From Ditylenchus dipsaci (Eukaryota > Nematoda > Chromadorea > Rhabditida > Anguinidae), in the NCBI GenBank assembly GCA_004194705.1, contig SADC01000443.1, forward strand, positions 54,059 through 118,058: 64,000 bases of DNA, written 5' to 3'. This document shows, in pieces, positions 5,862 through 45,860 of the stretch (its first letter is position 1; the number at the start of each line of letters is the position of its first letter). Made by a program: the position numbers and the translations under genes. The notes under the pieces were generated by a model. It was not told the DNA's origin and searched no databases. It saw nothing but the letters and a program-made list of their open reading frames with translations.

Positions 5862-5870
5862 ATAAAATAT

Positions 5871-13013: not shown

Positions 13014-13264
13014 ATTTTCGCAAAAAGTTAAACCCCCCCAATTTAGTAACCCACCAAAAACCAACTTTCAGGGGCTTCTGGGCTAGAAGCCGAAAATCGA
13101 ACACTCTCAATGTTAACATTTTCAATTAGCCCGAATTTTTTGACTGATGTGTGTTGTTGTTGTTAATTATTTTTCTTGTCCTCATTACTTCAATGGTTAT
13201 GCATTGAAATTATTTGCAGACTTACCAGCAATATTACATACATAATTCTTACAAGTCTTCTAAA

Positions 13265-14815
13265 ATGATTGCTGCCGAAACTTATTTCGACATTGTTGGA
13301 TTCATGGATCTAGCTGAGTGCCACAATTTGATCACCCTTTCTGCTACGATGAACACCATATTCAATCATCAAATAATACTTGTAGCAGAAAAGCGCTGGC
13401 TTTGGCTGCAATATAATTTGGAAAAAGTTGGTTTTGTTGTAGCTTTCCACGTTGACCTATTCAATATAACGGCTATTTTACCCCTAAAATATATCTATCC
13501 TAGATGAATTCTTCCTGCAAGACGTATTTCGAGATTTTCGGAAAATCTGTAAACAAAGTGCGCCACTTCGGAAGCAGCGATCAAGTCAAGCAGGCTAATA
13601 TTCAGTGGGGATTTCTGGTTGAAGAGTGCACTGCCTGCCTCAATGTCTTAGAATGCTTCGATCAGAAACTTAAGTCTGAGATAAAACGTAGTTCAATGCT
13701 GCTCGGTAATGGATATTGATTTTAAATCTTAACGTTAGCCCGTTTGCAGAACAAAAGTTCCCTGGTTCTACTCAAAACTTCGGATGGGCGTTTGGACCGA
13801 ATCGTAAGCAGTACTTTTTTTCAGTCCAAACTAATCGATCAAGCTTCAGTCACAGAATTGTCTTTGGATATGAAGTATGAACTGCTAGAAAAGATAGTTG
13901 ACAACTCTACTTGCATGGCTTAGAGGATGATGGTGATCTGGCGGAGAGTCGTTTGCTCAACTGCCAAACTTCTATGGCCGCTGTGAAAACTACTCTCAAT
14001 TGCATGCAGAATTCTGTGAAGACAGAGCTCAAACACATTTGCTCATTGGGTACTAATTTGTATGTACCATGTTCTTAATAATTTCTTTCATTGTTAAAGG
14101 TATTTCTGAGTCTAACAGTTCTGGCTCCAAAGTCAAAATGGTGGGATATCTGTGTTTTAGCAAACATATTTCTTCTGTTTAGATGAAGAAGTTCGTTTAT
14201 CTCAGGTCGCTATCAGTGTCCCGACCGCCTCAGATGTGCAAAGTACCAAGGCAGCAATGGTTTTGAGAAAACCATGACGACAATGCAATTTGAAAAAGAA
14301 TGTTGCCAGAAAGTTATCGATATTAATCTAAAAAGCTGGAAGCTGAGCTGCAACGCACTAAGTTACTGATTGGTACTGAATGCGAATTTTTTTCGTTTTT
14401 CAGTTTTATGTAATTTTTTTCAGAAATGAAGGATGCAGATGCTCTCCGAGAATTAGAATTCAAGTTTGGCTGGAAAGGTAATCAACAGCTTTTTCACCTG
14501 TACTGAGTAGTCAAATTTTAGTTGAAGAAATGACCTCTGACGAGAAGTTTGAAATGCTATCGGAAATTGTTGGCGTTCTCAACAGAAATGGATTGAATAA
14601 GGACAGTAAATTGGCCAAAGATCGTTTGTGCGATTCGGAGACAACAATAGCTTGCGTTAAAGCGATCCTAAGCTCCATCAAGGCCTGTGTTAAGACTGAG
14701 GAGGAGCATGCGATTGGTATTGCGTTTCTGTTTCATTTTGATTAGTTCTTGATTTTCTTCAGTACCTATTGCTTCGTGCAGTTCTAGTGTCCAGCCAACT
14801 TATCAGATCAATTAG
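13265..14815 (+). CDS. F-box-like protein B, paralogue of A, inverted twin of C
   Basis: It has the same nine-exon layout as gene A: 13265-13438, 13504-13705, 13750-13803, 13850-14049, 14100-14140, 14183-14372, 14424-14477, 14522-14716 and 14763-14815 (TAG). The F-box segment is identical in protein to gene A, whereas exons 2-9 follow gene C (MNSSCKTYFEIFGKSVNKVR against MDSSCKMNFEIFGQTVNKVR in A). The duplicated modules are present (KYELLEKI... and KFEMLSEIVGVLNRNGLNKD). One-base losses in exons 4, 5 and 6 relative to C break the frame, and some are bases that C retains, so sequence error is likely. AATAAA at 14905-14910 is the probable poly(A) signal. The A-like 5' end on a C-like body suggests gene conversion. 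Confidence 0.75.
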
Positions 14816-15119
14816 CAAAGAGCAAAGCTACTATAGTCTTCCATATTCCGCATCACATATTCTATTGAACCTTATGAACACTGTTGCAAGCCATTCACTT
14901 CATCAATAAAGATATTTTTATTGTCTGGGGTACCGTTGTATTGTGACATTTTATTGCGACCCGCTTTTTTGTGAAAGCTTTGCAGCCAATGAAAAACCAT
15001 TGTGTGCCGTTGAAATGTTCGAATGTTGTGAAATTTAATGGAAATCCACTGGTTCATTAGTGGAATAAAAAGAAGCTAGTGAAAATCTACCAGTTTTTCA
15101 TTGGATTCAAAAGCATCTG

Positions 15120-15420
15120 GCAGTCGGACGCAGATAAAATTTCGCCGCGCCCAAAATTTTGTTGCATATAGTCATTCGTCCATAACAGATATTTTGACCT
15201 GTTAAAGGGCCATTGCCACCTGTTTTGAATTGTCCCCGCCAATTCAAATTTATCGCCTAATCATTGAACTTCTGTACGGATTTTTCAGCTCGATTTCTAA
15301 CAAACAAGGCCTAGAATTTAATTTTAGGTCTAGTTGTGTTATAAACAAGTTGAAAATCCGTACAGAAGCTCAATGATCAGGAAATTTTTTGAATTGGCGG
15401 GGGACAACCGTTGTCGGGGA
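15120..15420. repeat. Foldback repeat with TGTACGGATTTTTCA
   Basis: AATTCAAATTTATCGCCTAATCATTGAACTTCTGTACGG is followed by its inverted copy CCGTACAGAAGCTCAATGATC. The outer parts mention CGGGGACAACCGTTGTCGGG. A related fragment is at 63050-63180. Mirrored at 43530-43760. Confidence 0.5.
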
Positions 15421-15449
15421 CGGCGATGGCCTTTTAACCATGGTTCTCA

Positions 15450-15950
15450 AAACCTACAAATTTGTAGAGACCTAAAAGACCTACAAAATACCTACAAAAT
15501 TTTCCTATCTTCTTTTGTTTTTTATCTGTACTTTTACCGAAAGTTTTTTCATAGTAAAAAGTAAAGTTGTGCAGAAGCTTCAGCGCTACATCTTTACTTT
15601 TTACCGCAAAAAAGTTTTTGGTAAAAGTACAGATAAAAAGACAAAAGAAGATACCGTATTTCCTCTAATAAGCGCCCCGGCCTCGACTTTGAGGTCTGGA
15701 TCTCAGTTTAGAAGCAATATTTTGCAAAGCTGTTTCATACGTTTTCTTAACTGCCACGAGCTCGACCGATTCCACTTTTTGGATTTTAATTGAGCACTCA
15801 AAAATCTCGAAATCGAATTCCAAATTTTCCGATTTTTGGGATCCAAAAAATAAGCGCCCCGGGGCGCTTATTAGAGGAAAATACGGTAAGAAAATTTTGT
15901 AGGTATTTTGGAGGTCTTGTAGGTCTCTACAAATTTGTAAATTTTGAGAA
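15450..15950. mobile_element. Foldback element with a nested ACCGTATTTT MITE
   Basis: CCTACAAATTTGTAGAGACC at the left is inverted at the right (GGTCTCTACAAATTTGTA). The inner stems contain TATCTGTACTTTTACCG. An ACCGTATTTCCTCTAATAAG MITE (15653-15887) sits inside the right half, so it inserted later. Mirrored at 43010-43510. Confidence 0.65.
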
Positions 15951-16137
15951 GCATGCTGTTAACCATTTTCTTGAATTCACACAACTGAATCGGCATGAGC
16001 TAGCATGTATCGCTTTTTGTGTGCTCAATATTGATTTTTTTTAAGTCACATTCATTTATTCATTCATCCTCGCAATGATATGAAGATTTTTGAACGTTGA
16101 CTAGGCTATGAAATCACACATCTAATCGAAATGCATA

Positions 16138-16206
16138 CAGTCAACCCTCGATTTTACGTCATCCTAAGGCGATCCCCAGGGGTAACGTCAAATCTAGGGT
16201 TGAATG
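16138..16206. mobile_element. Miniature pogo-like element (69 bp)
   Basis: The ends are CAGTCAACCCTCGATTTTAC and the complement of CATTCAACCCTAGATTTGAC, flanked by TA. Mirrored at 42517-42586. It is almost only inverted repeat. Confidence 0.6.
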
Positions 16207-18386
16207 TATCCACTTACCGTATATTCTCTATCAAAGGCCAAGGGCCTTTATTTTTCAAAATACCATACAAAACTTTATTTCACTATTATAAAACCATCTT
16301 CAGCATGCTTGAATCAGTCCAAAAAACAGGTTTTGGAACATGAAAATCGTAAAAAAAGTTTTTGATCCAAGTGGACGACCACTTGGTTTGGTTTGGTTCA
16401 GACTAAAAAATTCAAATTCCCGCGAAATTTTGAGTGAAAGTAAGAGTGAAGTAAGACTGAGAGGCAACTTTTCCTTGTGGGCACACACTTAGAGTGAGAG
16501 TGAAAGTCAGAATGAGAGTGAGAGTGAAGGGAAAATCCGATAATTGAATACGAGGCTTTACTGAAATAAGTCTAATTACTCTCTTCATCAGGTTGCTGTC
16601 CACGATTTCCTAAGTTCGCTTTAAGTTTAGTTTATGTTGCCGGTGCCGATTTTCCGGTGCGAGTTTTCCGGTGCCGAGTTTTCTGGTGCCGAGTTTCGGT
16701 GCCGAGTTTTCCCAACTCCTTATTTTTCAACCCCACTCGGATGGGGGGAGGGTCTTTATTAGAGAGGGGGCCTTTATTTTCCAACTAAAATGAGCGTTTA
16801 ATTTTTTTTGTGTTTTTAAAAAAAATTTCTGGAGTCCCAAACAAAAACAACTTTCCTTTTTTTTTTTCTAATTTTCAGACTGTTCTCTGTTGTGCCATTC
16901 CTTGTGGCATTGGTGCGTTTCGTAACTTTTGGTAATGCGGGAATTCAAATATTTTTTCGTTTTTGCTGTTTATCACAGAATTTTTAATTTTTTTCTAACT
17001 TAGGTTTAGCTTAGGCTAAGGGTAGGCCAGCGCATGTTAGCCGGGACTAAAAAATGTCTTACATAATGCAGAATAAGCGAAAATGAAAAAAATATTTGAA
17101 TTCCCGCATTACCCAAAAGTTACGAACGCCTACGCACCATTCCTTGTCACGCCGTTTTTTTCGTTGCACCCGCTTTAGTTTTTAATTTTTATTTCTGCTT
17201 CTGCAATTTGATGACTAAAAAAGTTTTGATCCGACTGGACGACCACTTGGTTTGGTTAGTACATACCGTAGTTCCTCTAATAAAAACATTGGGGATTATA
17301 TTTTCAGGATAGCTTCTACAGGGGGGCTTGTATATTTTGGATGGCTTCTAAGGGATGCTTAAATTAGAGGGGGTCTTATGATAGGAGGGGATTTTATCCG
17401 AGGAAATACGATATGACGTCCAGCAAAACTGCAGTTGCTTTCTGGAAAAATGGGCGCTACTGTAATATACCCCCCTCCCCAAAAAAAAAAACGCTACTGT
17501 AATATACCACCCCACCCAAAAAATCGACCTACTGTCATATCCCCAATAATTTTTTTGCAACTTTTTTCTGAAATCATTTATAATTTAATTCTCTATTAAT
17601 AAGCCATGGCTAATTATTTTTTCAACCCCTCGAAATTCGGCAAAATTGGAGGTCGATTTCGAAATTTCTGGGTGGTCAACCGAAATCTGAAAAGTGGAAT
17701 CGATAGAGCTCGTGAGAGTTAAGAAAATGCATTGAACAGGTTAGCAAAATATTTACTCTGCTATGAGATATAAGTCCTCAAAGTCAAAGGGGGCTAATTA
17801 TTAGAGAGTGGCTTATTAATACAGAAAATACGGTATTAGCTATATGACAGTAGCGTCCTAGTAGTGTTTCTTAGAGAAAAAAGAGTGTTTGAGCATACTT
17901 TCCTTGCAGGACCTACCGCATAAATGAACTCCGGTATGCATTTTTCATTTAAATTGCGTTTTCGAGTGATTTGTGTCTAAGGTATGTGTGTGTGCGCATC
18001 TCAACTCCAAGCCCCAAGCCTTCATATACCCCCCCCCCCCCCCCAAATCGACTTTTTTAGGAGTGTCCAAAAACCTATAATAATTTTGCCATAATAGGAC
18101 CGAAAAAGCAATTTTAAAGGGATCATGGGCTGTATTGGAAGGGGAAGGAACAAAACAGGGGCCAATTTTTTGCAAAATAAAGGCTGATTGTTTTTTACAC
18201 ATTAAAACTTTTACTTGTTAAAATTCTTATTTACAGTTTGAAAGTTTGTATTATTACATAATTTCGGCTGTAGAAAATTTAAATGGAGATATAATCAAGA
18301 AAAGCATCAAACACATGCAAATTTTCAGCAGTACAATTCAATTTAAATCCAGACTCACAAACATATCCGTATGATTCACAGAGGTT
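16207..18386. other. Repeat-rich stretch, no gene
   Basis: It contains a truncated copy of the AAGTGGACGACCACTTGG foldback family (16290-16420), a CGGTGCCGAGTTTTC tandem repeat (16635-16710), inverted GTAATGCGGGAATTCAAATA blocks (16925 and 17100), and ACCGTA-family elements at about 17267-17413 and 17580-17835. Relative to the right arm about 1.4 kb is missing near 16250. Confidence 0.55.
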
Positions 18387-18659
18387 CTAAACATATATTT
18401 CATTTTGTGTTAAAATGTGCATGGATTTCCTCCTGCTTATTTGTATGGATTCCAAACTGAGTATTATCTGGCAAAGTAATATAAGTAAGGTCTCTTTGTG
18501 TTTGACCATGTTATGTGAAGTTAGATAATAGTCATAATTATTTGCCAAATGGTTCTTCAAAAGTTTATGAGCTGGCCACTCATCCGAAACCAAAACTGTA
18601 TTCTCGTCCACACAAGCCATTACAAAATTATCATTGGTCTCGGCGGTTCTATCCTCCAT
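18387..18659 (-). pseudogene. Possible transposase fragment (weak IS1595-like resemblance)
   Basis: An open stretch reads ENTVLVSDEWPAHKLLKNHL and then NMVKHKE. The VSDEW plus a downstream V-x-H recalls the second catalytic Asp region of IS1595/ISXO2 transposases, but the first Asp region and the conserved C-terminal Asn/Glu segment are not seen. Mirrored at 38802-39076. The resemblance may be chance. Confidence 0.3.
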
Positions 18660-18754
18660 AAGCAGAGCACAACATCTACCTCGGTTACCTCAATTATCTT
18701 GGTGCAGTCTTATGTTTAAATTACACCCTTCCCATGCAGGACAGCGGCAAAAAT

Positions 18755-18900
18755 GAACTCATATAAAAAGGACACTTGTTCCCGGCCTGTGTAAAATGAC
18801 CGTTTGTTCCCGGTGACCGTTTGTTCCCGATGATCGACTGTTCCCGGCTCGTATAAAAAGGACATTTGTTCCCGGTTCATATAGAAAGTACGGGTTTGGT
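18755..18900. repeat. TTTGTTCCCGG repeat block
   Basis: At least five copies of a unit containing TTTGTTCCCGG, some with TATAAAAAGGACA, occur in a row. Mirrored at about 38575-38705. Confidence 0.6.
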
Positions 18901-18926
18901 AAGTCGACCTTATCTTATATTAGGTA

Positions 18927-19216
18927 CAGTCAAACCTCTATATATAACGGCACCTCTATATAGCGGCACCCTCTATATAACACCCCAAAATAAGACCAAT
19001 TTGGTTGGGTTAGACTAAAATTTAGTCAAAGTAAACCTTCTATATAACGGCACCTCTATATAACGGCACCCTCTATATAACGGCACCCAAACTAAGACCA
19101 ATTTGGTTGGGTTAGACTAAAATTTAGTCAAAGTAAACCTTCTATATAACGGCACCTTCTATATAACGGCACTTTTTTGCGGTCCCTAGGGGTGCCGTTA
19201 TATAGAGGTTTGACTG
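18927..19216. mobile_element. pogo/Tigger-like MITE
   Basis: The ends are CAGTCAAACCTCTATATATA and the complementary TATATAGAGGTTTGACTG, TA-flanked. The interior repeats TATATAACGGCACC and contains two copies of a block with CCAATTTGGTTGGGTTAGAC. Mirrored at 38252-38536. Confidence 0.75.
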
Positions 19217-19344
19217 TAATGTAATGTAATGTATTTTTATTATATAATTTAACCTCAGTTATACTGGATGACCACTTGGAAGACCACTTGGTTTTGCTGT
19301 ACCCAGGTTGGGAAACTCAGGTAGTGTAGTGGCGCCCGGGCACA

Positions 19345-21195
19345 GTGTTTCAAAATTCGAATTGGCTCAAATTGAATTCCACCCTCAAAAGTCTGAATTT
19401 CGACCTCTAATTATTTTTTTTCACCCTCTTATTCAAATTTCGATCAAAATACTGAATTTCGCCCTCTAATTTCTGAATTTCACCCTCTAATTTCTAAATT
19501 TCGTCAGCTAATTAGTTTTTTTTATTTCTCATGTTGTTTTTTCTTCTTTCAGATGCAATCACAAGCTATTCAAGTAAGAAGCGAGGACTAGCTCGCAAAT
19601 GGACAACAGTGTTGGTGTGCAAGAGCAAGGAAGATGCTGATCAATGGCTGACCGAAACAAAGAGCTTTGGATATAGTAAGTGATTGAGGTTGAATTGAGA
19701 TGTATCGGATACCTGCCTTTTAGCCATTACAGCAGTGAAACCTTTAAGTATGCCAACCAATCTTCTACTGTGATCATTCCAAGAAAAATCGCCCAGGAAA
19801 TTTTCAGTGCGAAGCAAATATGCGAATTCGTTACGGAAAAGATCTCTCTGCGCCATCCCTGGCATTGATTCAAACAACAGGTGTGCACGATCACAAAAGC
19901 TTGAAGGACAATGGATTGAGCAGTCCCATCAAGAACAGCATCAATGAAAAGGATGAACCATGCAGAGGAATGACTGCCAGGATGATTCAGCAAAAACTTC
20001 AGGTAATTCAGTCAAGTCATCAGTTAAATGAAATCACTATTTTCAGACTGAACCGTGTGTTTCCGGCTTCAGTTACCCACAATCAAGCAAATACAGAATC
20101 AGAAAAGTTGGTAAAGCTCTGGTTGAGCAATATATGCGGGATCGGAGCATGGATCCACAAAGAAAGGTACCTTTTTGGTAATTGTACTTCATACTTTTAT
20201 CATATACTTCAGGAGCCGCTACGGGTGCCAACTGTTCCAGAAGCCTCAATTGCAACATCCGCAAATCTATGGAGAGTCTTAAGAAAGAAAAGCGACCTTC
20301 TCTGTATTTCCAATATGCAAATGAATATATCTGGTTAATTGGTGCTAGCAGCTACAAAGGGAACGCTGAGGGTTTTAAAAAAGCTCTGGTAAGAATTAAA
20401 AGGAGCAACGCGTTCAGAAAACAGAGGGTTTGTCTACACCAATTGGCTCAATACAAGATGTTGCGTTCGTCATTCTAGACAATGAAGAAGTCATCTTGCT
20501 TTGAAGGCTATATATCCTGCACGTGTCCAATTGGAATCAAAGACGAAGTTTGCAAGCACTCTCTAATGATAATAGAGTCTGAAAACCTTATTGATCCTTT
20601 GCCGCAGCCACTGGAGGAAAGACAAAAGAGAGGACGAAAGCGAAAAGTAGGACATGCATTAGAGAGAACATGATTTATCAAGGTTGTTGTTATTTCTGCT
20701 GTTGTTATGTTTTTATTGCTGTTTATAGCTGTTTCTGCTCAAAAGGCATGAATAAATGGAGGATGCAGTCTAGGCTAAGATTTTGAATTCACATACAGGG
20801 ATGGGCACGGCCAGTATCGGAGCCGGGCTATCTGGAAAAAATATTATCAAAAATTAAGTTTCTTTGAAATTAACTACAAACTTCTGAAATTCAGTAATTT
20901 ACTGATGAAATTCAATATTTTTTTGTAAAAATTTGAACCACTGATTCGGTCGTCGCTTTTATGCCTCTTTGACCTCAGATCGTACATAGAGGAAGGAAAT
21001 ATAACTTCATAAACAAAAAATCAGCGAACAAATGATTAGCTGACGAAATTTAGAAATTAGAGGGTGAAATTCAGAATTAGAGGGCGAAATTAGTATTTTG
21101 ACCGAAATTTGAATTAGAGGGTGAAAAAAAATATTAGAGGGCGAAATTCAGACTTTAGAGGGTGCATTTCAGTTACAGCCAATTCGAATTTTAGT
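19345..21195. mobile_element. MULE-like element with tandem-repeat termini (left-arm copy)
   Basis: The termini are inverted repeats of about 170-190 bp. The left side runs AAAATTCGAATTGGCTC, then repeated CTGAATTTCGCCCTCTAATT-type units, to TTTCGTCAGCTAATTA. The right side at 21036-21195 is the complement. Between them lies the ORF with zinc-binding and SWIM regions. The exact outer ends and target duplication are not resolved; both sides contain GGCGCC near the edge. Confidence 0.6.
19553..20673 (+). CDS. MULE-derived protein with N-terminal zinc region and C-terminal SWIM finger; no DDE domain seen
   Basis: Exon 1 (19553-19674) begins MQSQAIQV and includes RKWTTVLVCKSKEDADQWL. The next exon has a Cys/His zinc-ligand pattern of the kind found at the N terminus of MULE transposases: FYCDHSKKN, QCEANMRI, then TTGVHDHK. 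A basic middle follows (YFQYANEYIWLIGASSYKGN). The last part, ISCTCPIGIKDEVCKHSLMI, is a SWIM zinc finger (CxC...CxH), and the end is KRGRKRKVGHALERT-TGA. The catalytic DDE domain that normally separates these two regions is absent in about 330 residues. Several one-base breaks occur; the inverted copy at 36797-37918 repairs some. It may be a non-autonomous element ORF or a retained DNA-binding protein. Confidence 0.6.
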
Positions 21196-21784
21196 ATGTT
21201 AGGAAAATTTGGCGCCAAATAAAAAATGGCAAAATTTTCAAAAATGGTCGATTTCAAACTATTTTTTATTTCGTGTTCCTCATCGAATTTTTTTCTCTTT
21301 TAGCCTTTGCATATTTAAAACCAAATATTCCTTACACTAAGGGCTTTCGAATGAGCCATCACTTGCCATAAGCATGCAAAATTTCAAAGCTATAATTGAT
21401 TTCTGTGAAAATTTCCAAGAAATTTTTTTCATCTAGTTGACTCGATTGAGATTCTAGCACTATTTTTGTCGAGGTTCCCTGAAACGCAACTGGAGGCTTG
21501 ATAGAGGAGTGAATTTGCTGCATTTTGTACCAAGGACGTATACAAAAAATGCAATTTTAGGTGTTTTATGCAAAAGTTAGATGGAAAACGCAAAAACCAC
21601 TATTTTCACTCGAGAAAATGCCAGTTGATGCTGTTAATGGTCTCTCGTTTGTAAAACTCTTGGTTTTGAAAATTCTATTTTGGTTAAAAGATTAGAATAG
21701 ATTCTAACTTTTTTTGTATATAAAGATGCTAAAAAGATACAAAATTTGGAGTTTTCGATACAAATAAATTCGAAATAATTTTAG
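21196..21784. other. 5' flank of the eS4 copy
   Basis: AT-rich, no recognised gene. The site corresponding to the right arm's hAT insertion is empty here (ATGAGCCATCACTTGCC near 21360 reads through without interruption). Confidence 0.6.
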
Positions 21785-22763
21785 ATCTGAAGATGGTTTC
21801 CACCAGAAGGATGTGCGCTAAGTCAAATGGACTGTCTCTCTCCGAAACAAGCAACTGCAGCTTGATGGCGAACAGCGTGCTATCAAAGTGGATGGAAAGG
21901 TGCGAACAGAATTTCGATTTCCTGCCGGTTTCATGGGATGTTCATATTTTCAATTTTCAAAGTCTTATTCAGAAACTATCTTTCAGACGTGATCCGAATT
22001 GTGAAAACTGACGAGATTTTCCGCCTTCTCTACGACATCAAGGGTCGCTTTGCTACTCACAGAATCTCCAAGCAGGAGGGTGCTTTCTAATTGGCTCAGG
22101 CCGTCAAGCAGTCCATTGGTCCCAAGAGTGTGCCATATATCGTGACCCATGATGCTCATACGATCCGTTATCCGGGTCCTCATCTCAAGTGTGTTTCCTA
22201 ATTTCGTTACTTATCAGTATATTCCAATTTAAACTTCTAGGTGGACCATACCGTGGTCATCGAAATTGAGACTGGCAAGATCACCGACTACGTCAAGTTC
22301 GACTCTGGCAACTTGTGCATGATCACTGGCAGACGCAACATGGGAAGAGTTGGAATTGTTGGACATCGCGAGCGCCGTCGGGATCCTTCGACATTGTCCA
22401 CATCAAAGATGCTGCCGGTCACACATTCGTCACTAGGTAAGTAAAATTGGAGTGAGAGTCGGGGCTGTGTTGCCATAAATACCGGCTGAGGTTGGTTGGT
22501 AGCTTAGCTGTGATCAGTTTAATTAAGTGCTTAGGTTAACAAGCTGTTCTTAGGCTGAACAATGTCTTCATCATCGGGAGAGACAGTGCTGCATTGGTTT
22601 CTCTTCCAGCCGACAAGTTATCAAGTTGTCCATTGCTGAGGAGCGTGATAAGCGTCTTGCCAGAAGCAGAAAGGTCTTCGAGAGGTCGAGTCATACTATT
22701 CATTGTCAGATCAAGTGTTTCGTTTGTTGTGATGATCGTCGTCGTAAATTTATGTGCCTTTGA
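21785..22763 (+). pseudogene. RPS4: 40S ribosomal protein eS4, left-arm copy, probably non-functional
   Basis: The exons are 21785-21936, 21987-22189, 22241-22436 and 22554-22763 (TGA), with AATAAA at 22775-22780. Recognisable eS4 segments include [73 protein letters not shown] and [11 protein letters not shown]. The N-terminal exon of eS4 is not found upstream, about eight residues are missing before AIKVDG, and a TAA interrupts exon 2 (GAF-stop-LAQ) where family members usually have Lys. The same TAA is in the right-arm copy, so it predates the duplication. Extra one-base losses here (the CGTC-GGG site near 22380 and GACAAG near 22615) are absent from the right arm. Introns are retained, so this is not a retrocopy. 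Confidence 0.8.
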
Positions 22764-23099
22764 GAAAAGGAATGAATAAAGTTGTTGATCAGTTAATTCA
22801 TTTGCGTGTTTTCTTTGCATTCATCGGTGAGAGTTGCTGTTTATTGGTTAGTCAAGAATATTTATATGTACGGAATGTGTTATATGATGGCGAAGTAAGG
22901 TGCTAAGGTAGTAAATTGCTAAAAAAATTACACGGAAAAGGCAAAAAAAAGAAAGCAATAAATTTTGAAAAGACTCTTTCAAAAATCTTGGCGTTTTGTC
23001 TAAAAATGAACCAAATAGATTTTCGACTTTTGAAACACTGTGCGGGTAGTAATATTTTTGTCTTGCGAAGAACTTTGAAAAATCAAAATGTTTTTCCAT

Positions 23100-36104: not shown

Positions 36105-36284
36105 GTGATGGCTCATTCGAAAGCCCTTAGTGTAAGGAATATTTTGGTTTTAAATATGCAAAGGCTAAAGAGAAAAAAATTCGATGAGGAACACGAAATA
36201 AAAAATAGTTTGAAATCGACCATTTTTGAAAATTTTGCCATTTTTTATTTGGCGCCAAATTTTCCTAACATACTAAAATTCGAA

Positions 36285-38140
36285 TTGGCTGTAACTGAAA
36301 TGCACCCTCTAAAGTCTGAATTTCGCCCTCTAATTATTTTTTTTCACCCTCTAATTCAAATTTCGGTCAAAATACTGAATTTCGCCCTCTAATTTCTGAA
36401 TTTCACCCTCTAATTTCTAAATTTCGTCAGCTAATCATTTGTTCGCTGATTTTTTGTTTATGAAGTTATATTTTCCTTCCTCTATGTACGATCTGAGGTC
36501 AAAGAGGCATAAAAGCAACGACCGAATCAGTGGTTCAAATTTTTACAAAAAAATATTGAATTTCATCAGTAAATTACTGAATTTCAGAAGTTTGTAGTTT
36601 AATTTCAAAGAAACTTAATTTTGATAATATTTTTCCAGATAGCCCGGCTCCGATACTGGCCGTGCCATCCCTGTATGTGAATTCAAAATCTTAGCCTAGA
36701 CTGCATCCTCCATTTATTCATGCCTTTTGAGCAGAAACAGCTATAAACAGCAATAAAAACAATAACAACAGCAGAAATAACAACAACCTTGATAAATCAT
36801 GTTCTCTCTAATGCATGTCCTACTTTTCGCTTTCGTCCTCTCTTTTGTCTTTCCTCCAGTGGCTGCGGCAAAGGATCAATAAGGTTTTCAGACTCTATTA
36901 TCATTAGAGAGTGCTTGCAAACTTCGTCTTTGATTCCAATTGGACACGTGCAGGATATATAGCCTTCAAAGCAAGATGACTTCTTCATTGTCTAGAATGA
37001 CGAACGCAACATCTTGTATTGAGCCCAATTGGTGTAGACAACCCTCTGTTTTCTGAACGCGTTGCTCCTTTTAATTCTTACCAGAGCTTTTTTAAACCCT
37101 CAGCGTTCCCTTGTAGCTGCTAGCACCAATTAACCAGATATATTCATTTGCATATTGGAAATACAGAGAAGGTCGCTTTTCTTTCTTAGACTCTCCATAG
37201 ATTTGCGGATGTTGCAATTGAGGCTTCTGGGAACAGTTGGCACCCGTAGCGGCTCCTGAAGTATATGATAAAAGTATGAAGTACAATTACCAAAAAGGTA
37301 CCTTTCTTTGTGGATCTATGCTCCGATCCCGCATATATTGCTCAACCAGAGCTTTACCAACTTTTCTGATTCTGTATTTGCTTGATTGTGGGTAACTGAA
37401 GCCCGGAAACACACGGTTCAGTCTGAAATAGTGATTTCATTTAACTGATGACTTGACTGAATTACCTGAAGTTTTTGCTGAATCATCCTGGCAGTCATTC
37501 CTCTGCATGGTTCATCCTTTTCATTGATGCTGTTCTTGATGGGACTGCTCAATCCATTGTCCTTCAAGCTTTTGTGATCGTGCACACCTGTTGTTTGAAT
37601 CAATGCCAGGGATGGCGCAGAGAGATCTTTTCCGTAACGAATTCGCATATTTGCTTCGCACTGAAAATTTCCTGGGCGATTTTTCTTGGAATGATCACAG
37701 TAGAAGATTTGGTTGGCATACTTAAAGGTTTCACTGCTGTAATGGCTAAAAGGCAGGTATCCGATACATCTCAATTCAACCTCAATCACTTACTATATCC
37801 AAAGCTCTTTGTTTTCGGTCAGCCATTGATCAGCATCTTCCTTGCTCTTGCACACCAACACTGTTGTCCATTTGCGAGCTAGTCCTCGCTTCTTTACTTG
37901 AATAGCTTGTGATTGCATCTGAAAGAAGAAAAAAACAACATGAGAAATAAAAAAAACTAATTAGCTGACGAAATTTAGAATTAGAGGGTGAAATTCAGAA
38001 ATTAGAGGGCGAAATTCAGTATTTTGATCGAAATTTGAATAAGAGGGTGAAAAAAAATAATTAGAGGTCGAAATTCAGACTTTTGAGGTGGAATTCAATT
38101 TGAGCCAATTCGAATTTTGAAACACTGTGCCCGGGCGCCA
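36285..38140. mobile_element. MULE-like element with tandem-repeat termini (right-arm copy)
   Basis: Inverted counterpart of 19345-21195. The left terminal block (36285-36440) carries CTGAATTTCGCCCTCTAATT-type units and the right block (37960-38135) is the complement. Confidence 0.6.
36797..37918 (-). CDS. MULE-derived zinc + SWIM protein (right-arm copy)
   Basis: Counterpart of 19553-20673. Exon 2 is longer in frame here: a stretch from SHYSSETFKYANQIFYCDHS through QCEANMRIRYGKD to RGMTARMIQQKLQ is uninterrupted, which fixes the reading of the N-terminal Cys/His region. The C-terminal SWIM exon (ISCTCPIGIKDEVCKHSLMI) is identical to the left copy. It also lacks a DDE domain. Confidence 0.6.
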
Positions 38141-38251
38141 CTACACTACCTGAGTTTCCAACCTGGGTACAGCAAAACCAAGTGGTCTTCCAAGTGGTCA
38201 TCCAGTATAACTGAGGTTAAATTATAAATAAAAAATACATACATTACATTA

Positions 38252-38536
38252 CAGTCAAACCTCTATATAACGGCACCCTAGGGACCGCAAAAAAGTGCGT
38301 TATATAGAAGGTGCCGTTATATAGAAGGTTTACTTTGACTAATTTTAGTCTAACCCAACCAAATTGGTCTTAGTTTGGGTGCCGTTATATAGAGGGTGCC
38401 GTTATATAGAGGTGCCGTTATATAGAAGGTTTACTTTGACTAAATTTTAGTCTAACCCAACCAAATTGGTCTTATTTGGTGTGTTATATAGAGGGTGCCG
38501 CTATATAGAGGTGCCGTTATATATAGAGTTTGACTG
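38252..38536. mobile_element. pogo/Tigger-like MITE (mirror)
   Basis: Inverted counterpart of 18927-19216, with ends CAGTCAAACCTCTATATAAC and TATATAGAGTTTGACTG, TA-flanked. Confidence 0.75.
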
Positions 38537-38574
38537 TACCTAATATAAGATAAGGTCGACTTACCAAACCCGTA

Positions 38575-38705
38575 CTTTCTATATGAACCGGGAACAAATG
38601 TCCTTTTTATACGAGCCGGGAACAGTCGATCATCGGAACAAACGGTCACCGGGAACAAACGGTCATTTTACACAGGCCGGGAACAAGTGTCCTTTTTATA
38701 TGAGT
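38575..38705. repeat. CCGGGAACAAA repeat block (mirror)
   Basis: Repeated CCGGGAACAAATG/ACGGTCA motifs, inverted counterpart of 18755-18900. Confidence 0.6.
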
Positions 38706-38801
38706 TCATTTTGCCGCTGTCCTGCATGGGAAGGGTGTAATTTAAACATAAGACTGCACCAAGATAATTGAGGTAACCGAGGTAGATGTTGTGCTCTGCT
38801 T

Positions 38802-39076
38802 ATGGAGGATAGAACCGCCGAGACCAATGATAATTTTGTAATGGCTTGTGTGGACGAGAATACAGTTTTGGGTTTCGGATGAGTGGCCAGCTCATAAAAC
38901 TTTTGAAGAACCATTTGGCAAATAATTATGACTATTATCTAACTTCACATAACATGGTCAAACACAAAGAGACTTTACTTTATTTACTTTGCCAGATAAT
39001 ACTCAGTTTGGAATCCATACAAATAAGCAGGAGGAAATCCATGCACATTTTAAACACAAATGAAATATATGTTTAG
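38802..39076 (+). pseudogene. Possible transposase fragment (mirror)
   Basis: Counterpart of 18387-18659. The frame is lost in the middle (one extra G near 38872) and resumes as LLKNHLANNYDYYLTSHNMV. Confidence 0.3.
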
Positions 39077-41207
39077 AACCTCTGTGAATCATACGGATAT
39101 GTTTGTGAGTCTGGATTTAAATTGAATTGTACTGCTGAAATTTGCATGTGTTTGATGCTTTTCTTGATTATATCTCCATTTAAATTTTCTACAGCCGAAA
39201 TTATGTAATAATACAAACTTTCAAACTGTAAATAAGAATTTTAACAAGTAAAAGTTTAATGTGTAAAAAACAATCAGCCTTTATTTTGCAAAAATTGGCC
39301 CTGTTTTGTTCCTTCCCCTTCCAATACAGCCCATGATCCCTTTAAATTGCTTTTTCGGTCCTATATGGCAAAATTATTATAGGTTTTTGGACACTCCTAA
39401 AAAAGTCGATTTGGGGGGGGGGGGGGGTATGAAGGCTTGGGGGCTTGGAGTTGAGATGCGCACACACACATACCTTAGACACAATCACTCGAAAACGCAA
39501 TTTAAATGAAAATGCATACCGGAGTTCATTTATGCGGTAGGTCCCTGCAAGGAAAGTATGCTCAAACACTCTTTTTTTCTCTAAGAAACACTACTAGGAC
39601 GCTACTGTCATATAGCTAATACCGTATTTTCTGTATTAATAAGCCACTCTCTAATAATTAGCCCCCCTCGACTTTGAGGACTTATATCTCATAGCAGAGT
39701 AAATATTTGCTAAGCTGTTCAATGCATTTTCTAACTCTCACGAGCTCTATCGATTCCACTTTTCAGATTTCGGTTGACCACCCAAAAATTTCGAAATCGA
39801 CCTCCAATTTTGCCGAATTTCGAGGGGTTGAAAAATAATTAGCCATGGCTTATTAATAGAGAATTAAATTATAAATGATTTCAGAAAAAAGTTGCAAAAA
39901 AATTATTGGGGGATATGACAGTAGGTCGATTTTTTGGGTGGGGGTGGTATATTACAGTAGCGTTTTTTTTTTGGGGAGGGGGGGTATATTACAGTAGCGC
40001 CCATTTTTCCATAAAGCAACTGCAGTTTTGCTGGACGTCATATCGTATTTCCTCGGATAAAATCCCCTCCTATCATAAGACCCCCTCTAATTTAAGCATC
40101 CCTTAGAAGCCATCCAAAATATACAAGCCCCCTGTAGAAGCTATCCAAAATATAATCCCCAATGTTTTTATTAGAGGAACTACGGTATGTACTAACCAAA
40201 CCAAGTGGTCATCCAGTCGGATCAAAACTTTTTTTAGTCACCAAATTGCAGAAGCAGAAATAAAAATTAAAAACTAAAGCGGGTGCAACGAAAAAAACGG
40301 CGTGACAAGGAATGGAGCGTAGGCGTTTCGTAACTTTTGGGTAATGCGGGAATTCAAATATTTTTTTCATTTTCGCTTATTCTGCATTATGTAAGACATT
40401 TTTTAGTCCCGGCTAACATGCGCTAGCCTACCCTTAGCCTAAGCCTAAGTTAGAAAAAATTAAAAAATCTGTGATAAACAGCAAAAAAAGAAAAAAATAT
40501 TTGAATTCCCGCATTACACAAAAGTTACGTAACGCACCAATGCCACAAGGAATGGCACAACAGAGAACAGTCTGAAAATTTGAAAAAAAGAGGAAAGTTG
40601 TTTTTGTTTGGGACTCCAGAATTTTTTTAAACACAAAAAAAAATTAAACGCTCATTTTAGTTGGAAAATAAAGGCCCCTCTCTAATAAAGACCCTCCCCC
40701 CATCCGAGTGGGGTTGAAAAATAAGGAGTTGGGAAAACTCGGCACTGAAAACTCGGCACCAGAAAACTCGGCACCGGAAAACTCGCACCGGAAAACTCGG
40801 CACCGGCAAACATAAACTAAACTTAAAGCGAACTTAGGAAATCGTGGACAGCAACCTGATGAAGAGAGTAATTAGACTTATTTCAGTAAAGCCTCGTATT
40901 CAATTATCGGATTTTCCCTTCACTCTCACTCTCAGTGTGTGCCCACAAGGAAAAAGTTGCCTCTCAGTCTTACTTCACTCTTACTTTCACTCAAAATTTC
41001 GCGGGAATTTGAATTTTTTAGTCTGAACCAACCAAACCAAGTGGTCGTCCACTTGGATCAAAAACTTTTTTTACGATTTTCATGTTCCAAAAACTGTTTT
41101 CTGAACTGATTCAAGCATGCTGAAATTGGTTCGATAGTGGTAAAATGCCGTTTTGTAGGGTATTTTTTGAGTTTTGGTAAAAATCAATTATTTCCCATAC
41201 TCAAAAA
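39077..41207. other. Repeat-rich stretch, no gene
   Basis: It mirrors 16430-18386. It contains an ACCGTATTTTCTGT-family element at about 39620-39870, another at about 40045-40195, inverted GTAATGCGGGAATTC blocks at 40345 and 40500, a CTCGGCACCGGAAAA repeat (40740-40805), and the start of an AAGTGGTCGTCCACTTGG foldback copy at 41040. Confidence 0.55.
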
Positions 41208-41621
41208 GGTTAAAATTGAAAACACCCGTCAAAATGTATAAATCTCCCGTCAAATTTTTAAAAACTTTTTGTTTTCGGTGTTAACTTCTCAATTTTTTCA
41301 TTTTTTGTGCACCAGCATGTAGCCCTGAATCTCTAGTTTCTGATGAGCTATCAATTGGCTGAGTACAGTATTGAAAAGTGGGAGAACAATTCATTTTGAA
41401 AAAATAGGTGTAGTTTGCAACTCTTCTCCTAATTTTTGATATTGTATTCAGCCAGTTGATGGCTCATCAGAAACTAGAGATTCAGGGCTACATGCTGGTG
41501 CAAAGCAATAAAAAAATTGAGCAGTTAACACGAAGAACAAAAAGTTTTAAAAATTTGACGGGAGATTTCTATATTTTGACGTGAGATTTACACATTTTGA
41601 CGGGTGTTTTCACCTTCAGCC
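41208..41621. mobile_element. Small foldback element with 9-bp duplication, right arm only
   Basis: The termini are GGTTAAAATTGAAAACACCC and the complement of GGCTGAAGGTGAAAACACCC, flanked by ACTCAAAAA on both sides (41199-41207 and 41622-41630). The arms contain TGACGGGAGATTTATACATT-like tandem units. It sits inside a copy of the AAGTGGTC foldback family. Confidence 0.75.
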
Positions 41622-41630
41622 ACTCAAAAA

Positions 41631-42080
41631 ATACTCTAAAAACCTTATTTTACTATTATCAAACCGTCTTCAGCGTGTCCGGATTAGTCCAGAAATAGAA
41701 ATCCAGACTACCTGGGTACAACAAAACCAAATGATCATCCACTTGTATCACAAATTTACTTACGTTTTTCATGTTCCAAAACCTGTTTTCTGGACTGATT
41801 CGGACATGCTGAAGATGGTTTTATAATAGTGAAATAAAGTTTTGTATGGTATTTTTCGAGTATTGTGATACAATTGATTTTAATAAAACTCGATCTTACC
41901 AAAACTTGAAAAACACCCGAGAAAACGGCGTTTTACCACTATTAAACCATCTTCAGCATGCCCGAATTAGTCCAGAAAACAGGTTTTGGAAACCGAATAA
42001 GTAAAAAAAATTACTCCAAGTGGACGACCACTTGGTTTGGTTGGACTAAAAAATTCAAATTCCCGCGAAATTTTCTCAAA
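41631..42080. mobile_element. AAGTGGTC foldback family, remaining part
   Basis: CCAAAACCTGTTTTCTGGAC, GACATGCTGAAGATGGTTTT and the inverted CCATCTTCAGCATGCCCGAA / AACAGGTTTTGGAA are visible, ending in GTGGACGACCACTTGG. The left arm retains only about 110 bp of this block. Confidence 0.6.
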
Positions 42081-42349
42081 ACCGAGGTTGATGGTTCGAA
42101 CCCCTATGGATGCAAAGAATACTGTCCAGGTTTTCGGATACTGTCCAGGTGGGTTAATACTATCCAGGTGGTTTGGATACGACAGCACCCAAGTGCACCA
42201 CGACAATACCAAGGGTATATGGCCGCTTCGTGGCCAAAGACCAGCAGACTGCACATTGCAATGCATTGGGGTAAAAATCAAAGGAACCGAAGTTCATATC
42301 CATGAAAGTTTAGATCAATTTCTTCGATTAGACCAACAGCAGCTTCTAA

Positions 42350-42460
42350 TTCAATTCGGTGCCGAGTTTTCTGGTGCCGAGTTTTCCGGTGCCGAGTTCT
42401 CGGTGCCGAGTTTTCTGGTGCCGAGTTTTCGGTGCCGTGTTTTCCCGTGCGAGTTTTCCC
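42350..42460. repeat. CGGTGCCGAGTTTTC tandem repeat
   Basis: About seven copies of a 15-16 bp unit GGTGCCGAGTTTTCT. The same unit occurs at 40740-40805 (complement) and 16635-16710. Confidence 0.7.
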
Positions 42461-42516
42461 GGCACCGAAAAATAAAGGCCCTTGGGCTTTGATAGAGAAT
42501 ATACGGTAAGTGGATA

Positions 42517-42586
42517 CATTCAACCCTAGATTTGACGTTACCCCTGGGGATCGGCCTTAGGATGACGTAAAATCGAGGGTTGACTG
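42517..42586. mobile_element. Miniature pogo-like element (mirror)
   Basis: Inverted counterpart of 16138-16206; CATTCAACCCTAGATTTGAC to AAAATCGAGGGTTGACTG, TA-flanked. Confidence 0.6.
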
Positions 42587-42689
42587 TATGCATTTCGATT
42601 AGATGTGTGATTTCATAGCCTAGTCAACGTTCAAAATCTTCATATCATTGCGAGGATGAATGAATAAATGAATGTGACTTAAAAAAATC

Positions 42690-42913
42690 GGAGCAAATAT
42701 AGTATACCCACCCCACTGAACTATAGTATACCCACCCCAGAAATTCGCCTTGGTCCCCCAAGCTGATTTTTTTTCACAAATTTTTTTTTACAAATTTTTT
42801 TTTACAAATTTTTTGCAAAAAAAAATTTGTAAAAAAATCAGCTTGGGGACCAAGGCAAATTTCTGGGGTGGGTATACTATAGTTCAGTGGGGTGGGTATA
42901 CTTAAGTTTAGCC
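42690..42913. mobile_element. hAT-like MITE, right arm only
   Basis: The ends are GGAGCAAATATAGTATACCC and the complement of GGCTAAACTTAAGTATACCC, with a perfect 8-bp duplication AAAAAATC (42682-42689 and 42914-42921). The arms include CCCACCCCAGAAATTCGCCT and its inverse around an AAATTTTTTTTTA core. The left arm at about 16030 has an empty site. Confidence 0.85.
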
Positions 42914-43009
42914 AAAAAATCAATATTGAGCACACAAAAAGCGATACATGCTAGCTCATGCCGATTCAGTTGGTGAATTCAAGAAAATGGTTAACAGCAT
43001 GCTTCTCAA

Positions 43010-43510
43010 AACCTACAAATTTGTAGAGACCTACAAGACCTCCAAAATACCTACAAAAATTTTCTTAAGTATTTTCCTCTAATAAGCGCACTGGGCGCTT
43101 ATTTTTTGGATCCCCAAAAATCGGAAAATTTGGAATTCGATTTCGAGATTTTTGAGTGCTCAATTGAAATCCAAAAAGTGGAATCGGACGAGTTCGTGGC
43201 AGTTAAGAAAACGTATGAAACAGCTTTGCAAATATTGCTTCTAAACTGAGATCCAGACCCTCAAAGTCGAGGCGGGGGCGCTTATTAGAGGAAATACGGT
43301 ATCTTCTTTTGTCTTTTTATCTGTACTTTTACCAAAAACTTTTTTGCGGTAAAAAAGTAAAGATGTAGCGCTGAAGCTTCTGCACAACTTTACTTTTTAC
43401 TATGAAAAAACTTTTCGGTAAAAGTACAGATAAAAAGACAAAAGAAGATAGGAAAATTTTGTAGGTATTTTGTAGGTCTTTTAGGTCTCTACAATTTGTA
43501 GGTTTTGAGA
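43010..43510. mobile_element. Foldback element with nested ACCGTATTTT MITE (mirror)
   Basis: Inverted counterpart of 15450-15950. The nested MITE spans about 43065-43302, so its insertion predates the arm duplication. Confidence 0.65.
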
Positions 43511-44142
43511 ACCATGGTTAAAGGCCATCGCCGTCCCCGACAACGGTTGTCCCCCGCCAATTCAAAAAAAAATCCTAATCATTGAGCTTCTGTACGGATT
43601 TTTCAACTTGGTTTATAACACAACTAGACCTAAAATTAAATTCTAGGCCTTGTTTTGTTAGAAATCGAGCTGAAAAAATCCGTACAGAAGTTCAATGATT
43701 AGGCGATAAATTTTAATTGGCGGACAATTCAAAACAGGTGGCAATGGCCCTTTAACAGGTCAAAATATCTGTTATGGACGAATGACTATATGCAACAAAA
43801 TTTTGGGCGCGGCGAAATTTTATCTGCGTCCGACTGCCAGATGCTTTTGAATCCAATGAAAAAACTGGTAGATTTTCACTAGCTTCTTTTTATTCCACTA
43901 ATGAACCAGTGGATTTCCATTAAATTTCACAACATTCGAACATTTCAACGGCACACAATGGTTTTTCATTGGCTGCAAAGCTTTCACAAAAAAGCGGGTC
44001 GCAATAAAATGTCACAATACAACGGTACCCCAGACAATAAAAATATCTTTATTGATGAAGTAAATGGCTTGCAACAGTGTTCATAAGGTTCAATAGAATA
44101 TGTGATGCGGAATATGGAAGACTATAGTAGCTTTGCTCTTTG

Positions 44143-45697
44143 CTAATTGATCTGATAACTTGGCTGGACACTAGAACTGCACGAAGCAATAGGTACTGAA
44201 GAAAATCAAGAACTAATCAAAATGAAACAGAAACGCAATACCAATCGCATGCTCCTCCTCAGTCTTAACACAGGCCTTGATGGAGCTTAGGATCGCTTTA
44301 ACGCAAGCTATTGTTGTCTCCGAATCGCACAAACGATCTTTGGCCAATTTACTGTCCTTATTCAATCCATTTCTGTTGAGAACGCCAACAATTTCCGATA
44401 GCATTTCAAACTTCTCGTCAGAGGTCATTTCTTCCACTAAAATTTGACTACTCAGTACAGGTGAAAAAGCTGTTGATTACCTTTCCAGCCAAACTTGAAT
44501 TCTAATTCTCGGAAAGCATCTGCATCCTTCATTGCTGAAAAAAATTACATAAAACTGAAAAACGAAAAAAATTCGCATTCAGTACCAATCAGTAACTTAG
44601 TGCGTTGCAGCTCAGCTTCCAGCTTTTTTAGATTAATATCGATAACTTTCTGGCAACTTTCTTTTCAAATTGCATTGTCGTCATGGTTTTCTCCAAACAC
44701 ATTGCTGCCTTGGTACTTTGCACATCTGAGGCGGTCGGACACTGATAGCGACCTGAGATAAACGAACTTCTTCATCTAAACAGAAGAAATATGTTTACTA
44801 ATAAAACACAGATATCCCACCATTTTGACTTTGAAGGCCAGAACTGTTAGACTCAGAAATACCTTTAACAATTAAAGAAATTATTAAGAACATGGTACAT
44901 ACAAATTAGTACCCAATGAGCAAATGTGTTTGAGCTCTGTCTTCACAGAATTCCGCATGCAATTGAGAGTAGTTTTCACAGCCGACATAGAATTTTGGCA
45001 GTTGAGCAAACGACTCTCCGCCAGATCACCATCATCCTCTAAGCCATGCAAGTAGAGTTGTCCAACTATCTTTTCTAGCAGTTCATACTTCATATCCAAA
45101 GACAATTCTGTGACTGAAGCTTGATCGATTAGTTTGGACTGAAAAAAAGGACTGCTTACGATTCCATCCAAACGCCCATCCGAAGTTTTGAGTAGAACCA
45201 GGGAACTTTTGTTCTGCAAACGGGCTAACGTTAAGATTTAAAAATTAATATCCATTACCGAGCAGCATTGAACTACGTTTATCTCAGACTTAAGTTTCTG
45301 ATCGAAGCATTCTAAGACATTGAGGCAGGCAGTGCACTCTTCAACCAGAAATCCCCACTGAATATTAGCCTGCTTGACTTGATCGCTGCTTCCGAAGTGG
45401 CGCACTTTGTTTACAGATTTTCCGAAATCTCGAAATACATCTTGCAGGAAGAATTCATCTAGGATAGATACATTTTAGGGGTAAAATAGCCGTTATATTG
45501 AATAGGTCAACGTGGAAAGCTACAACAAAACCAACTTTTTCCAAATTATATTGCAGCCAAAGCCAGCGCTTTTCTGCTACAAGTATTATTTGATGATTGA
45601 ATATGGTGTTCATCGTAGCAGAAAGGGTGATCAATTTGTGACACCCAGCTGGATCTATGAATCCAACAATGTCGAAATAAGTTTCAGCAGCAATCAT
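44143..45697 (-). CDS. F-box-like protein C, inverted twin of B
   Basis: Nine exons mirror gene B, starting at the ATG 45697 and ending at the TAG 44143-44145. The F-box segment differs from A and B at four positions (GFIDPAGCHK against GFMDLAECHN), while later exons match B closely: module 1 KYELLEKIVGQLYLHGLEDD in frame and module 2 KFEMLSEIVGVLNRNGLNKD in frame. Exon 5 is 42 nt and in frame here, against 41 in B. One base is missing in exon 2 near 45430 and a few near 44640-44740. The conserved AG acceptor lies 45-50 bases upstream of the ATG as in A and B. Probable role as in A: an SCF-type substrate adaptor with an uncharacterised C-terminal module. Confidence 0.75.
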
Positions 45698-45860
45698 TAT
45701 AGAAAATTTGCAAGAAGTATGTAATATTGCTGGTAAGTCTGTAAATAATTTCAGTGTCCAACTATTTGAAGTAATGACGACAACAAAAATAAATTAATAT
45801 CAAAAATACACATCAATCGGAAAAATTCGGTGCTAATCGAAAATTTTAATATCAAGAGTG

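What the first reader, a model, noticed from the sequence alone, without database searches (positions are those of the whole stretch)
13080..45860. A 33-kb imperfect palindrome around a 0.5-kb loop
Genes, pseudogenes and mobile elements appear in mirrored order on opposite strands around about 27.9 kb. It could be a genuine inverted duplication, or two alleles joined head to head, as has been reported for some asexual or rearranged genomes, or an assembly foldback. A single misread hairpin molecule would give identical arms; these arms differ by whole transposons, which argues against a simple one-molecule artefact.
Basis: partly seen in the sequence, partly recalled or inferred. Interest (0 to 1): 0.85.

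Follow-up and report, generated by a model that had tools for sequence, protein, structure and literature searches.

The report
Worm DNA stretch copied in reverse
In the genome of a plant-feeding nematode, a stretch of about 15,000 bases sits beside a reversed copy of itself; the sequence fits a real copying accident during DNA repair better than an assembly error, but only the raw reads can settle that.

Summary
The palindrome is present in the assembly: left arm 13085-27637, loop 27638-28155 (518 bp), right arm 28156-45877, blocks 96.4-98.6% identical, 0.82% substitutions at clean sites of 13442-27637. The window is the last 64 kb of a 118-kb contig, probably of Ditylenchus dipsaci.

Contig C161 carries left flank, loop parts and inner right arm in the same order, without a left arm. 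So the left arm looks like an inverted copy inserted between left flank and loop, not an allele joined head to head.

The left arm's outer end is a hybrid gene copy: 37 of 37 informative sites follow neighbour U1, then 121 of 124 follow the right arm. The loop's edge truncates a dispersed element that continues in C161 and in 5 of 5 copies examined. Insertions in one arm only show later divergence.

Best reading: a true inverted duplication made by homology-primed, template-switching repair. Assembly error is not excluded: no reads were available, and the consensus is weak in the right arm beside the loop and at 21.0-22.5 kb. Known kind; modest interest.

The parts
8786..10713 (-). U1: neighbouring copy of the gene-like unit U (orphan), same orientation as the right-arm copy; 95% identical to C161 (23328 onward), 76-78% to the arm copies
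10714..12720 (.). left spacer, mostly shared with C161 (pieces at 90-95%); ends at the central loop of a 940-bp inverted-repeat element that is complete in C161 (26973-27907)
12848..13080 (.). dispersed MITE-like element that abuts the outer end of the left arm (query positions 159-391)
13085..27637 (+). left arm (inverted copy); hybrid unit U at its outer end
13085..13327 (+). U1-like patch of the left arm; the switch to right-arm-like sequence lies in 13328-13441, where no informative site occurs
24640..25989 (.). insertion in the left arm only; its ORF matches DDE_Tnp_IS1595 (E 8.2e-08); imperfect direct repeat of about 15 bp at the ends, one copy in the right arm
27162..27592 (.). dispersed element present in both arms (mirror copy 28203-28621), absent from C161, where the flanking matches overlap by 6 bp; so inserted before the duplication
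27638..28155 (.). single-copy loop; left part (27645-27906) inverted relative to C161 and truncating a dispersed element, then 3 extra ACTGAGAT copies (27906-27935), then sequence collinear with C161 across 28156
28156..45877 (-). right arm; inner end in the same order and orientation as in C161 (29240-30005), so taken as the original copy
28657..29407 (+). inner right-arm stretch with 14 one-base deletions against C161 (left-arm counterpart has 4): weak consensus beside the loop
33073..36104 (.). insertion in the right arm only; ends CAGTGTTTTCGAAACTC, 8-bp target duplication GTGATGGC, empty site in the left arm (hAT-like; label recalled, no Pfam match in two of its ORFs)
42690..42913 (.). 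small inverted-repeat element in the right arm only, with target duplication AAAAAATC

Best explanation
A true inverted duplication on a chromosome of the nematode, made by repair synthesis that changed template. The starting chromosome ran U1 - spacer - loop region - right arm - U2 (the right arm's U copy) - right flank. After a break left of the loop, the left end (ending in a U1-like piece of unit U) paired with the inverted paralogue U2. Synthesis then copied the right arm back towards the loop and was joined by end joining at the loop, leaving small scars. Later the arms gained separate transposons and about 0.8% substitutions. Shown in the assembly: hybrid U copy, C161 order without the left arm, truncated element at the loop, one-arm insertions. 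Inferred: the break, the direction of copying, and that a U1-like piece stood at the left end beforehand.
For: C161:23179-30017 has U1, spacer, loop parts and inner right arm in C442's order, pieces 90-96% identical, with no left arm. Unit U has long copies only in both arms, U1 and C161; all 8 candidates were scored, the other four matches being 59-189 bp. Sharp switch in the left arm's U: 37 of 37 informative sites U1-like, then 121 of 124 right-arm-like (sites where the left arm matches neither parent are not counted). Where U1 and C161 differ in the patch, the left arm follows U1 at 8 of 8 sites. The loop's left edge cuts a dispersed element that continues upstream in C161 and in 5 of 5 copies examined, of 36 other places listed (in L007 only a shorter part continues). 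Three extra ACTGAGAT copies stand at the next junction. An element shared by both arms but absent from C161 predates the event; one-arm insertions with target duplications postdate it. Derived substitutions in U are balanced, 7 left, 7 right, 5 unresolved.
Against: No reads: no single molecule is shown to cross 27637/27638 or the 13085 junction, and C161 does not corroborate those two joins. The right arm beside the loop has a poor consensus (14 one-base deletions in 767 aligned columns against C161, versus 4 in 780 in the left arm), as at thin coverage; the left arm has another weak spot at 21.0-22.5 kb. A U1-like piece at the left end before the event is assumed; later gene conversion from U1 gives the same hybrid. 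The loop needs more than one junction. No allele without the left arm was found (only the 40 best candidates were scored). C161 shares only about 6.8 kb with C442 in the 80 kb read, so it is a paralogous block, not a clean ancestor. The flanking direct duplications of the human relatives are missing.
Confidence: 0.55

Rival explanations
1. Assembly error: reads from two haplotypes or loci of a pooled, heterozygous culture were joined wrongly by Canu/Quickmerge, so that the left arm is real DNA placed in the wrong spot.
For: Published assembly 227 Mb against 160-170 Mb by flow cytometry, DNA of about 7,500 worms, 42x PacBio RSII, two Canu runs (one with corMinCoverage 0) merged by Quickmerge. 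Many residual one-base indels between the arms, 195 in 12,716 aligned bases, rising from 5.9 per kb at the outer end to 22.1 per kb near the loop, and weak consensus beside the loop and at 21.0-22.5 kb. Palindromes in draft genomes have been suspected as scaffolding errors.
Against: It needs two wrong joins (13085 and 27637/27638) that happen to put the left arm between sequences that are neighbours in C161. No N in the window. The hybrid U switches within 114 bp, too short for a long-read overlap join (inference). The loop is 518 bp of local DNA, also found in C161, with scars, not a zero-length foldback.
Confidence: 0.2
2. True inverted duplication by another route (plain fold-back or end joining); the U1-like end of the left arm is a later gene conversion from U1, 2.4 kb away.
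For: A conversion tract limited by the homology of U would end where it does. A single-copy loop with fold-back is the anatomy of the sequenced human inverted duplications. A substitution-poor tract, 8 of 4,126 clean sites in 18490-24056 against 55 of 3,949 in 13442-18489, suggests conversion between the arms too.
Against: It leaves unexplained why left-right homology ends just where the paralogy of U ends. The poor tract may also come from reads of both arms mixed in the consensus.
Confidence: 0.17
3. Two alleles of one locus joined head to head, as proposed for some asexual animals.
For: Arms differ by transposons and about 0.8% substitutions, a plausible allelic distance.
Against: Flanks outside the arms share only short dispersed-repeat stretches; the left flank is next to the loop in C161; the species is entered as m/f in a karyotype catalogue.
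Confidence: 0.06
4. One giant mobile element with 15-kb terminal inverted repeats.
For: Inverted-repeat anatomy; many small inverted-repeat elements in the window.
Against: No target duplication outside the arms (only two 4-bp shared words in 20 bp on each side); the outer unit has long copies only in the arms, U1 and C161; no second copy of the whole among the candidates scored (14 and 38 capped at 40).
Confidence: 0.02

Closest known systems
Inverted-repeat-primed rearrangements of the DUP-TRP/INV-DUP type (PLP1, MECP2; PMC4352052, passages read)
   Same: One junction inside inverted paralogues giving a hybrid repeat, a second junction with short scars; inverted copy placed next to the original.
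   Different: Far smaller (about 15 kb), no flanking direct duplications seen, in a nematode, old enough to have gained transposons.
Fold-back inverted duplications with a single-copy spacer (PMC3907307, passages read)
   Same: Single-copy spacer between inverted copies; hybrid repeats at some junctions; insertions at others.
   Different: Spacer 518 bp against 766-70,466 bp there; no terminal deletion known here; the hybrid is at the outer end, not at the spacer.
Palindromes reported in asexual genomes: Adineta vaga, Folsomia candida, Meloidogyne incognita and M. arenaria (passages read)
   Same: Mirror-ordered copies on one scaffold.
   Different: Those are collinear blocks of genes, some suspected as scaffolding errors; here the species is probably sexual and the outer flanks are not allelic.
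Y-chromosome palindromes with arm-to-arm gene conversion (recalled; described in passages)
   Same: Large, nearly identical arms around a small spacer; a substitution-poor tract.
   Different: Arms 0.8% apart with one-arm transposons; no evidence of a sex chromosome; conversion not proven.

Membership tests
Inverted-repeat-primed template-switch duplication (DUP-TRP/INV-DUP type) | junction inside inverted paralogous repeats, producing a hybrid copy | tested here: met
   37 of 37 then 121 of 124 informative sites switch parent across 13328-13441; that a U1-like piece stood there beforehand is inferred
Inverted-repeat-primed template-switch duplication (DUP-TRP/INV-DUP type) | second junction with microhomology or templated insertion | tested here: inconclusive
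   truncated element and about 10 extra bases at the arm-loop edge, three extra ACTGAGAT copies at the next edge; origin of the repeats unproven
Inverted-repeat-primed template-switch duplication (DUP-TRP/INV-DUP type) | flanking direct duplications | tested here: not met
   contig self-comparison at 300 bp and 80% identity or more shows none beside the arms; so it is said to work like this type, not to be a member
Fold-back inverted duplication | single-copy spacer between inverted copies | tested here: met
   518-bp loop, present once in the window; other long matches only in C161, the rest being dispersed-element pieces (40 candidates scored)
Fold-back inverted duplication | adjacent terminal deletion or translocation | not testable with these tools
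   contig ends 18 kb beyond the right arm
Head-to-head alleles (A. vaga-type palindrome) | homology of the arms continues into both outer flanks | tested here: not met
   outside the arms only short matches of dispersed-repeat type, under 250 bp
Missed-adapter or fold-back read artefact | near-zero loop and identical arms | tested here: not met
   518-bp loop, insertions in one arm only
Terminal-inverted-repeat mobile element | target duplication and other copies of the whole | tested here: not met
   (14 and 38 scored the 40 best candidates only)
Palindrome with arm-to-arm gene conversion | tracts of arm identity beyond expectation | tested here: inconclusive
   8 of 4,126 against 55 of 3,949 clean sites, Fisher p 1.7e-10, boundaries chosen after seeing the data; mixed reads would give the same

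The most novel reading that the evidence does not exclude
A genuine 15-kb palindrome in a sexually reproducing nematode whose arms are still exchanging sequence by gene conversion (the 18.5-24.1 kb tract) and which was born by homology-primed template switching through a hybrid orphan gene. That would make such palindromes ordinary repair products rather than a mark of asexuality.
Probability: 0.3. Interest if true: 0.5.

Novelty: new member of a known kind. Interest (0 to 1): 0.35.

Why it matters
Large palindromes have been read as signs of lost meiosis in rotifers, springtails and root-knot nematodes, and doubted as misassemblies. A case with a readable order of events (element shared by both arms, then duplication, then one-arm insertions), a relative without the left arm in the same genome and a hybrid gene at one junction gives a concrete, testable example of how such palindromes can arise in a probably sexual species. 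It also warns that gene models in the arms of this crop-pest assembly might be counted twice (not tested).

Tried and rejected
Pfam searches of 10 and 10 proteins (single ORFs of arms and flanks, and one database protein; E up to 1) gave above the curated cut-off one match only, DDE_Tnp_IS1595 in 25574-25861. Below the cut-off were a second IS1595 match (18390-18689), Glyco_transf_7C and Glyco_tranf_2_2 (51366-51674), and weak DUF5823 and ATPase_2 matches in U1's ORF 9717-10085. The U ORFs of the right arm, the inner-arm ORF and the other proteins matched nothing. A protein search with the inner-arm ORF found nothing. Rfam at gathering thresholds and the tRNA scan of the window were empty. I looked for allelic contigs of pieces of the left and right flank and saw only short dispersed-repeat matches among the 40 candidates scored in each, so the no-palindrome allele could not be shown.

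Substitution counts depend on the aligner: 253 mismatches in the whole-arm MAFFT alignment, 215 at clean sites in block-wise MAFFT, 140 in the BLAST blocks, of which 101 lie at clean sites; I use the BLAST clean sites. A three-way MAFFT count of the inner arm gives 5 left-only and 6 right-only substitutions and 18 left-only against 13 right-only gap columns; its ends are unaligned, so it does not show the imbalance of one-base deletions seen with BLAST. I first took the left arm's U1-like end as simple proof of gene conversion; the end of paralogy at the same place made a homology-primed switch at least as good. The 7-bp inverted repeat at the left outer edge (seen by eye) and the break at the centre of the C161 inverted-repeat element may be clues to a hairpin-type break but carry no weight alone.
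Full report
What was checked. Self-BLAST of the window gives five collinear inverted blocks covering 13085-27637 and 28156-45877 around a 518-bp loop. The unaligned remainders are about 0.23 kb, about 1.3 kb and about 3.0 kb present only in the right arm and about 1.35 kb only in the left. For the 1.3-kb piece I did not settle whether it was gained by the right arm or lost by the left. No N occurs in the window.

Where it lies. The window is positions 54059-118058 of contig C442 (118,058 bp) in an assembly of 226,978,389 bases and 1,359 contigs. An ORF of the outer arm unit is 97% identical, over 59% of the query, to a Ditylenchus dipsaci protein; only two proteins were found, both of that species. 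Size and GC (37.9% in the window) are close to the published D. dipsaci draft, whose whole text I read (PMC6929663): 227,234,012 bp in 1,394 scaffolds, 37.5% GC, PacBio RSII at 42x, DNA of about 7,500 worms, two Canu assemblies merged with Quickmerge, scaffolded, haplotigs purged, haploid size 160-170 Mb by flow cytometry. The totals are close but not equal, so the identification is an inference. A karyotype catalogue enters the species as 'm/f', 2n=24, with many variant counts (PMC11555361, passages).

A relative without the left arm. A genome search with the loop finds, besides itself, contig C161 at 94-96% identity as the best match; the rest are pieces of dispersed elements (40 candidates scored). 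In C161:23179-30017 the order is unit U1, spacer, loop parts, inner right arm, in pieces of 90-96% identity, with no left arm. Outside this 6.8-kb block, the 80 kb of C161 read and C442 share only short repeat-type matches, so C161 is a paralogous block rather than an allelic contig. Unit U has long copies only in the two arms, U1 and C161; all 8 candidates were scored and the other four matches are 59-189 bp. Searches with 45878-51233 and 2900-8786 gave only short dispersed-repeat matches besides C442 itself, among the 40 candidates scored in each.

Outer junction. In the left arm's U copy, 37 of 37 informative sites in 13084-13327 follow U1. From 13442 to 13997, 121 of 124 follow the right arm. 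The switch lies in the 114 bases between. Informative means that U1 and the right arm differ and the left arm matches one of them; sites where the left arm matches neither were not counted. At the 8 positions of the patch where U1 and C161 differ, the left arm follows U1. So the left arm ends in a hybrid gene copy, and its first 243-357 bases are only paralogous to the right arm. A dispersed MITE-like element abuts this end.

Inner junctions. The right edge of the loop is collinear with C161 across 28156. The left part of the loop is inverted relative to C161. Its edge truncates a dispersed element that continues upstream in C161 and in 5 of 5 other copies examined (L004-L008, of 36 other places listed; in L007 only a shorter part continues). 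So C161 looks ancestral here and C442 derived. Between this part and the C161-collinear part stand three extra copies of ACTGAGAT; the window holds 7 copies against 1.88 expected, and none of 100 shuffles reached 7 (the word was chosen after seeing the sequence). I read these as end-joining scars; that is inference.

Order of events. A dispersed element at 27162-27592 and 28203-28621 is in both arms but absent from C161, where the flanking matches overlap by 6 bp: it came first. Then the duplication. Then one-arm insertions: 33073-36104 with target duplication GTGATGGC and 42690-42913 with AAAAAATC in the right arm, 24640-25989 with an IS1595-type transposase ORF in the left. Derived substitutions in U are balanced, 7 left and 7 right, 5 unresolved.

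Divergence. At clean sites inside 13442-27637 the arms differ at 78 of 9,565 (0.82%), against 82 of 2,282 (3.59%) between C442 and C161 in the largest shared block. Differences are uneven: 55 of 3,949 in 13442-18489 and 8 of 4,126 in 18490-24056 (Fisher p 1.7e-10, or 3.2e-07 without the dense 16250-16500 stretch; boundaries chosen after seeing the data). This suggests conversion between arms, or reads of both arms mixed in the consensus.

Warnings. One-base indels between the arms are frequent (195 in 12,716 aligned bases) and rise from 5.9 per kb in 13442-15150, close to the 5.7 per kb between U1 and C161 in the same unit, to 22.1 per kb in 25983-27637. In the count over the whole arms 182 of 199 lie in runs of two or more equal bases, and the deletions split 99 left, 100 right. 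These look like unpolished PacBio errors. Beside the loop they sit in the right arm: 14 one-base deletions against C161 versus 4 in the left arm. The left arm has its own weak spot at 21.0-22.5 kb, and against other copies of the repeats at 19.4-21.2 kb the two arms are alike. Thin read coverage near a palindrome centre would give this whether the palindrome is true or false. No reads could be examined.

Reading. Allelic head-to-head joining is disfavoured because the outer flanks are not homologous and the left flank is next to the loop in C161. A simple foldback read is disfavoured by the loop and the arm differences. A misassembly would need two wrong joins that happen to frame the inserted arm correctly, one of them within a 114-bp stretch. 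A true inverted duplication by homology-primed template switching accounts for both junctions and resembles the two-junction scheme described for human inverted triplications (PMC4352052, passages) and spacer-bearing fold-back duplications (PMC3907307, passages). It lacks the flanking duplications of the former, so I claim likeness of mechanism, not membership.

Literature. Palindromes in asexual animals and doubts about them were read in passages of PMC5490193, PMC7953838, PMC5465968 and PMC5916493. A search for Ditylenchus with palindrome gave 4 papers, of which I saw the listing only, none evidently on this; a search for Ditylenchus dipsaci with inverted duplication gave 0. The library holds open-licence papers only.

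Noticed in passing
window 52113-53654: A 1.54-kb inverted repeat aligned to itself over its whole length (94%), carrying 21-bp tandem repeats (ATACTTTTTTTTGCCGCAAAT) at both ends.
   Followed up: no
window 60343-60849: About 34 copies of a 15-bp tandem repeat, open in several frames.
   Followed up: no
window 51366-51901: Exon-like ORFs resembling polypeptide N-acetylgalactosaminyltransferase (PDB best E 2.6e-06; Pfam Glyco_transf_7C below cut-off) in the right flank.
   Followed up: partly
window 27645-27830; C161 about 28330-28640; L004-L008: Dispersed element whose two ends look like inverted tRNA-type promoter heads (GGCGCAGTGGATAAGCG ... GGTTCGATCCC); 36 other places among the 40 candidates scored (the tRNA likeness is recalled, and ARAGORN finds no tRNA in the window).
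   Followed up: partly
C442 contig positions 18349-19023 and 20431-21106 (outside the window): An inverted repeat of 676 bp at 99.6% identity with 1.4 kb between the copies.
   Followed up: no
C161:26973-27907; window 12281-12720: A 940-bp inverted-repeat element, of which C442 keeps only the left half, broken at its central loop.
   Followed up: partly
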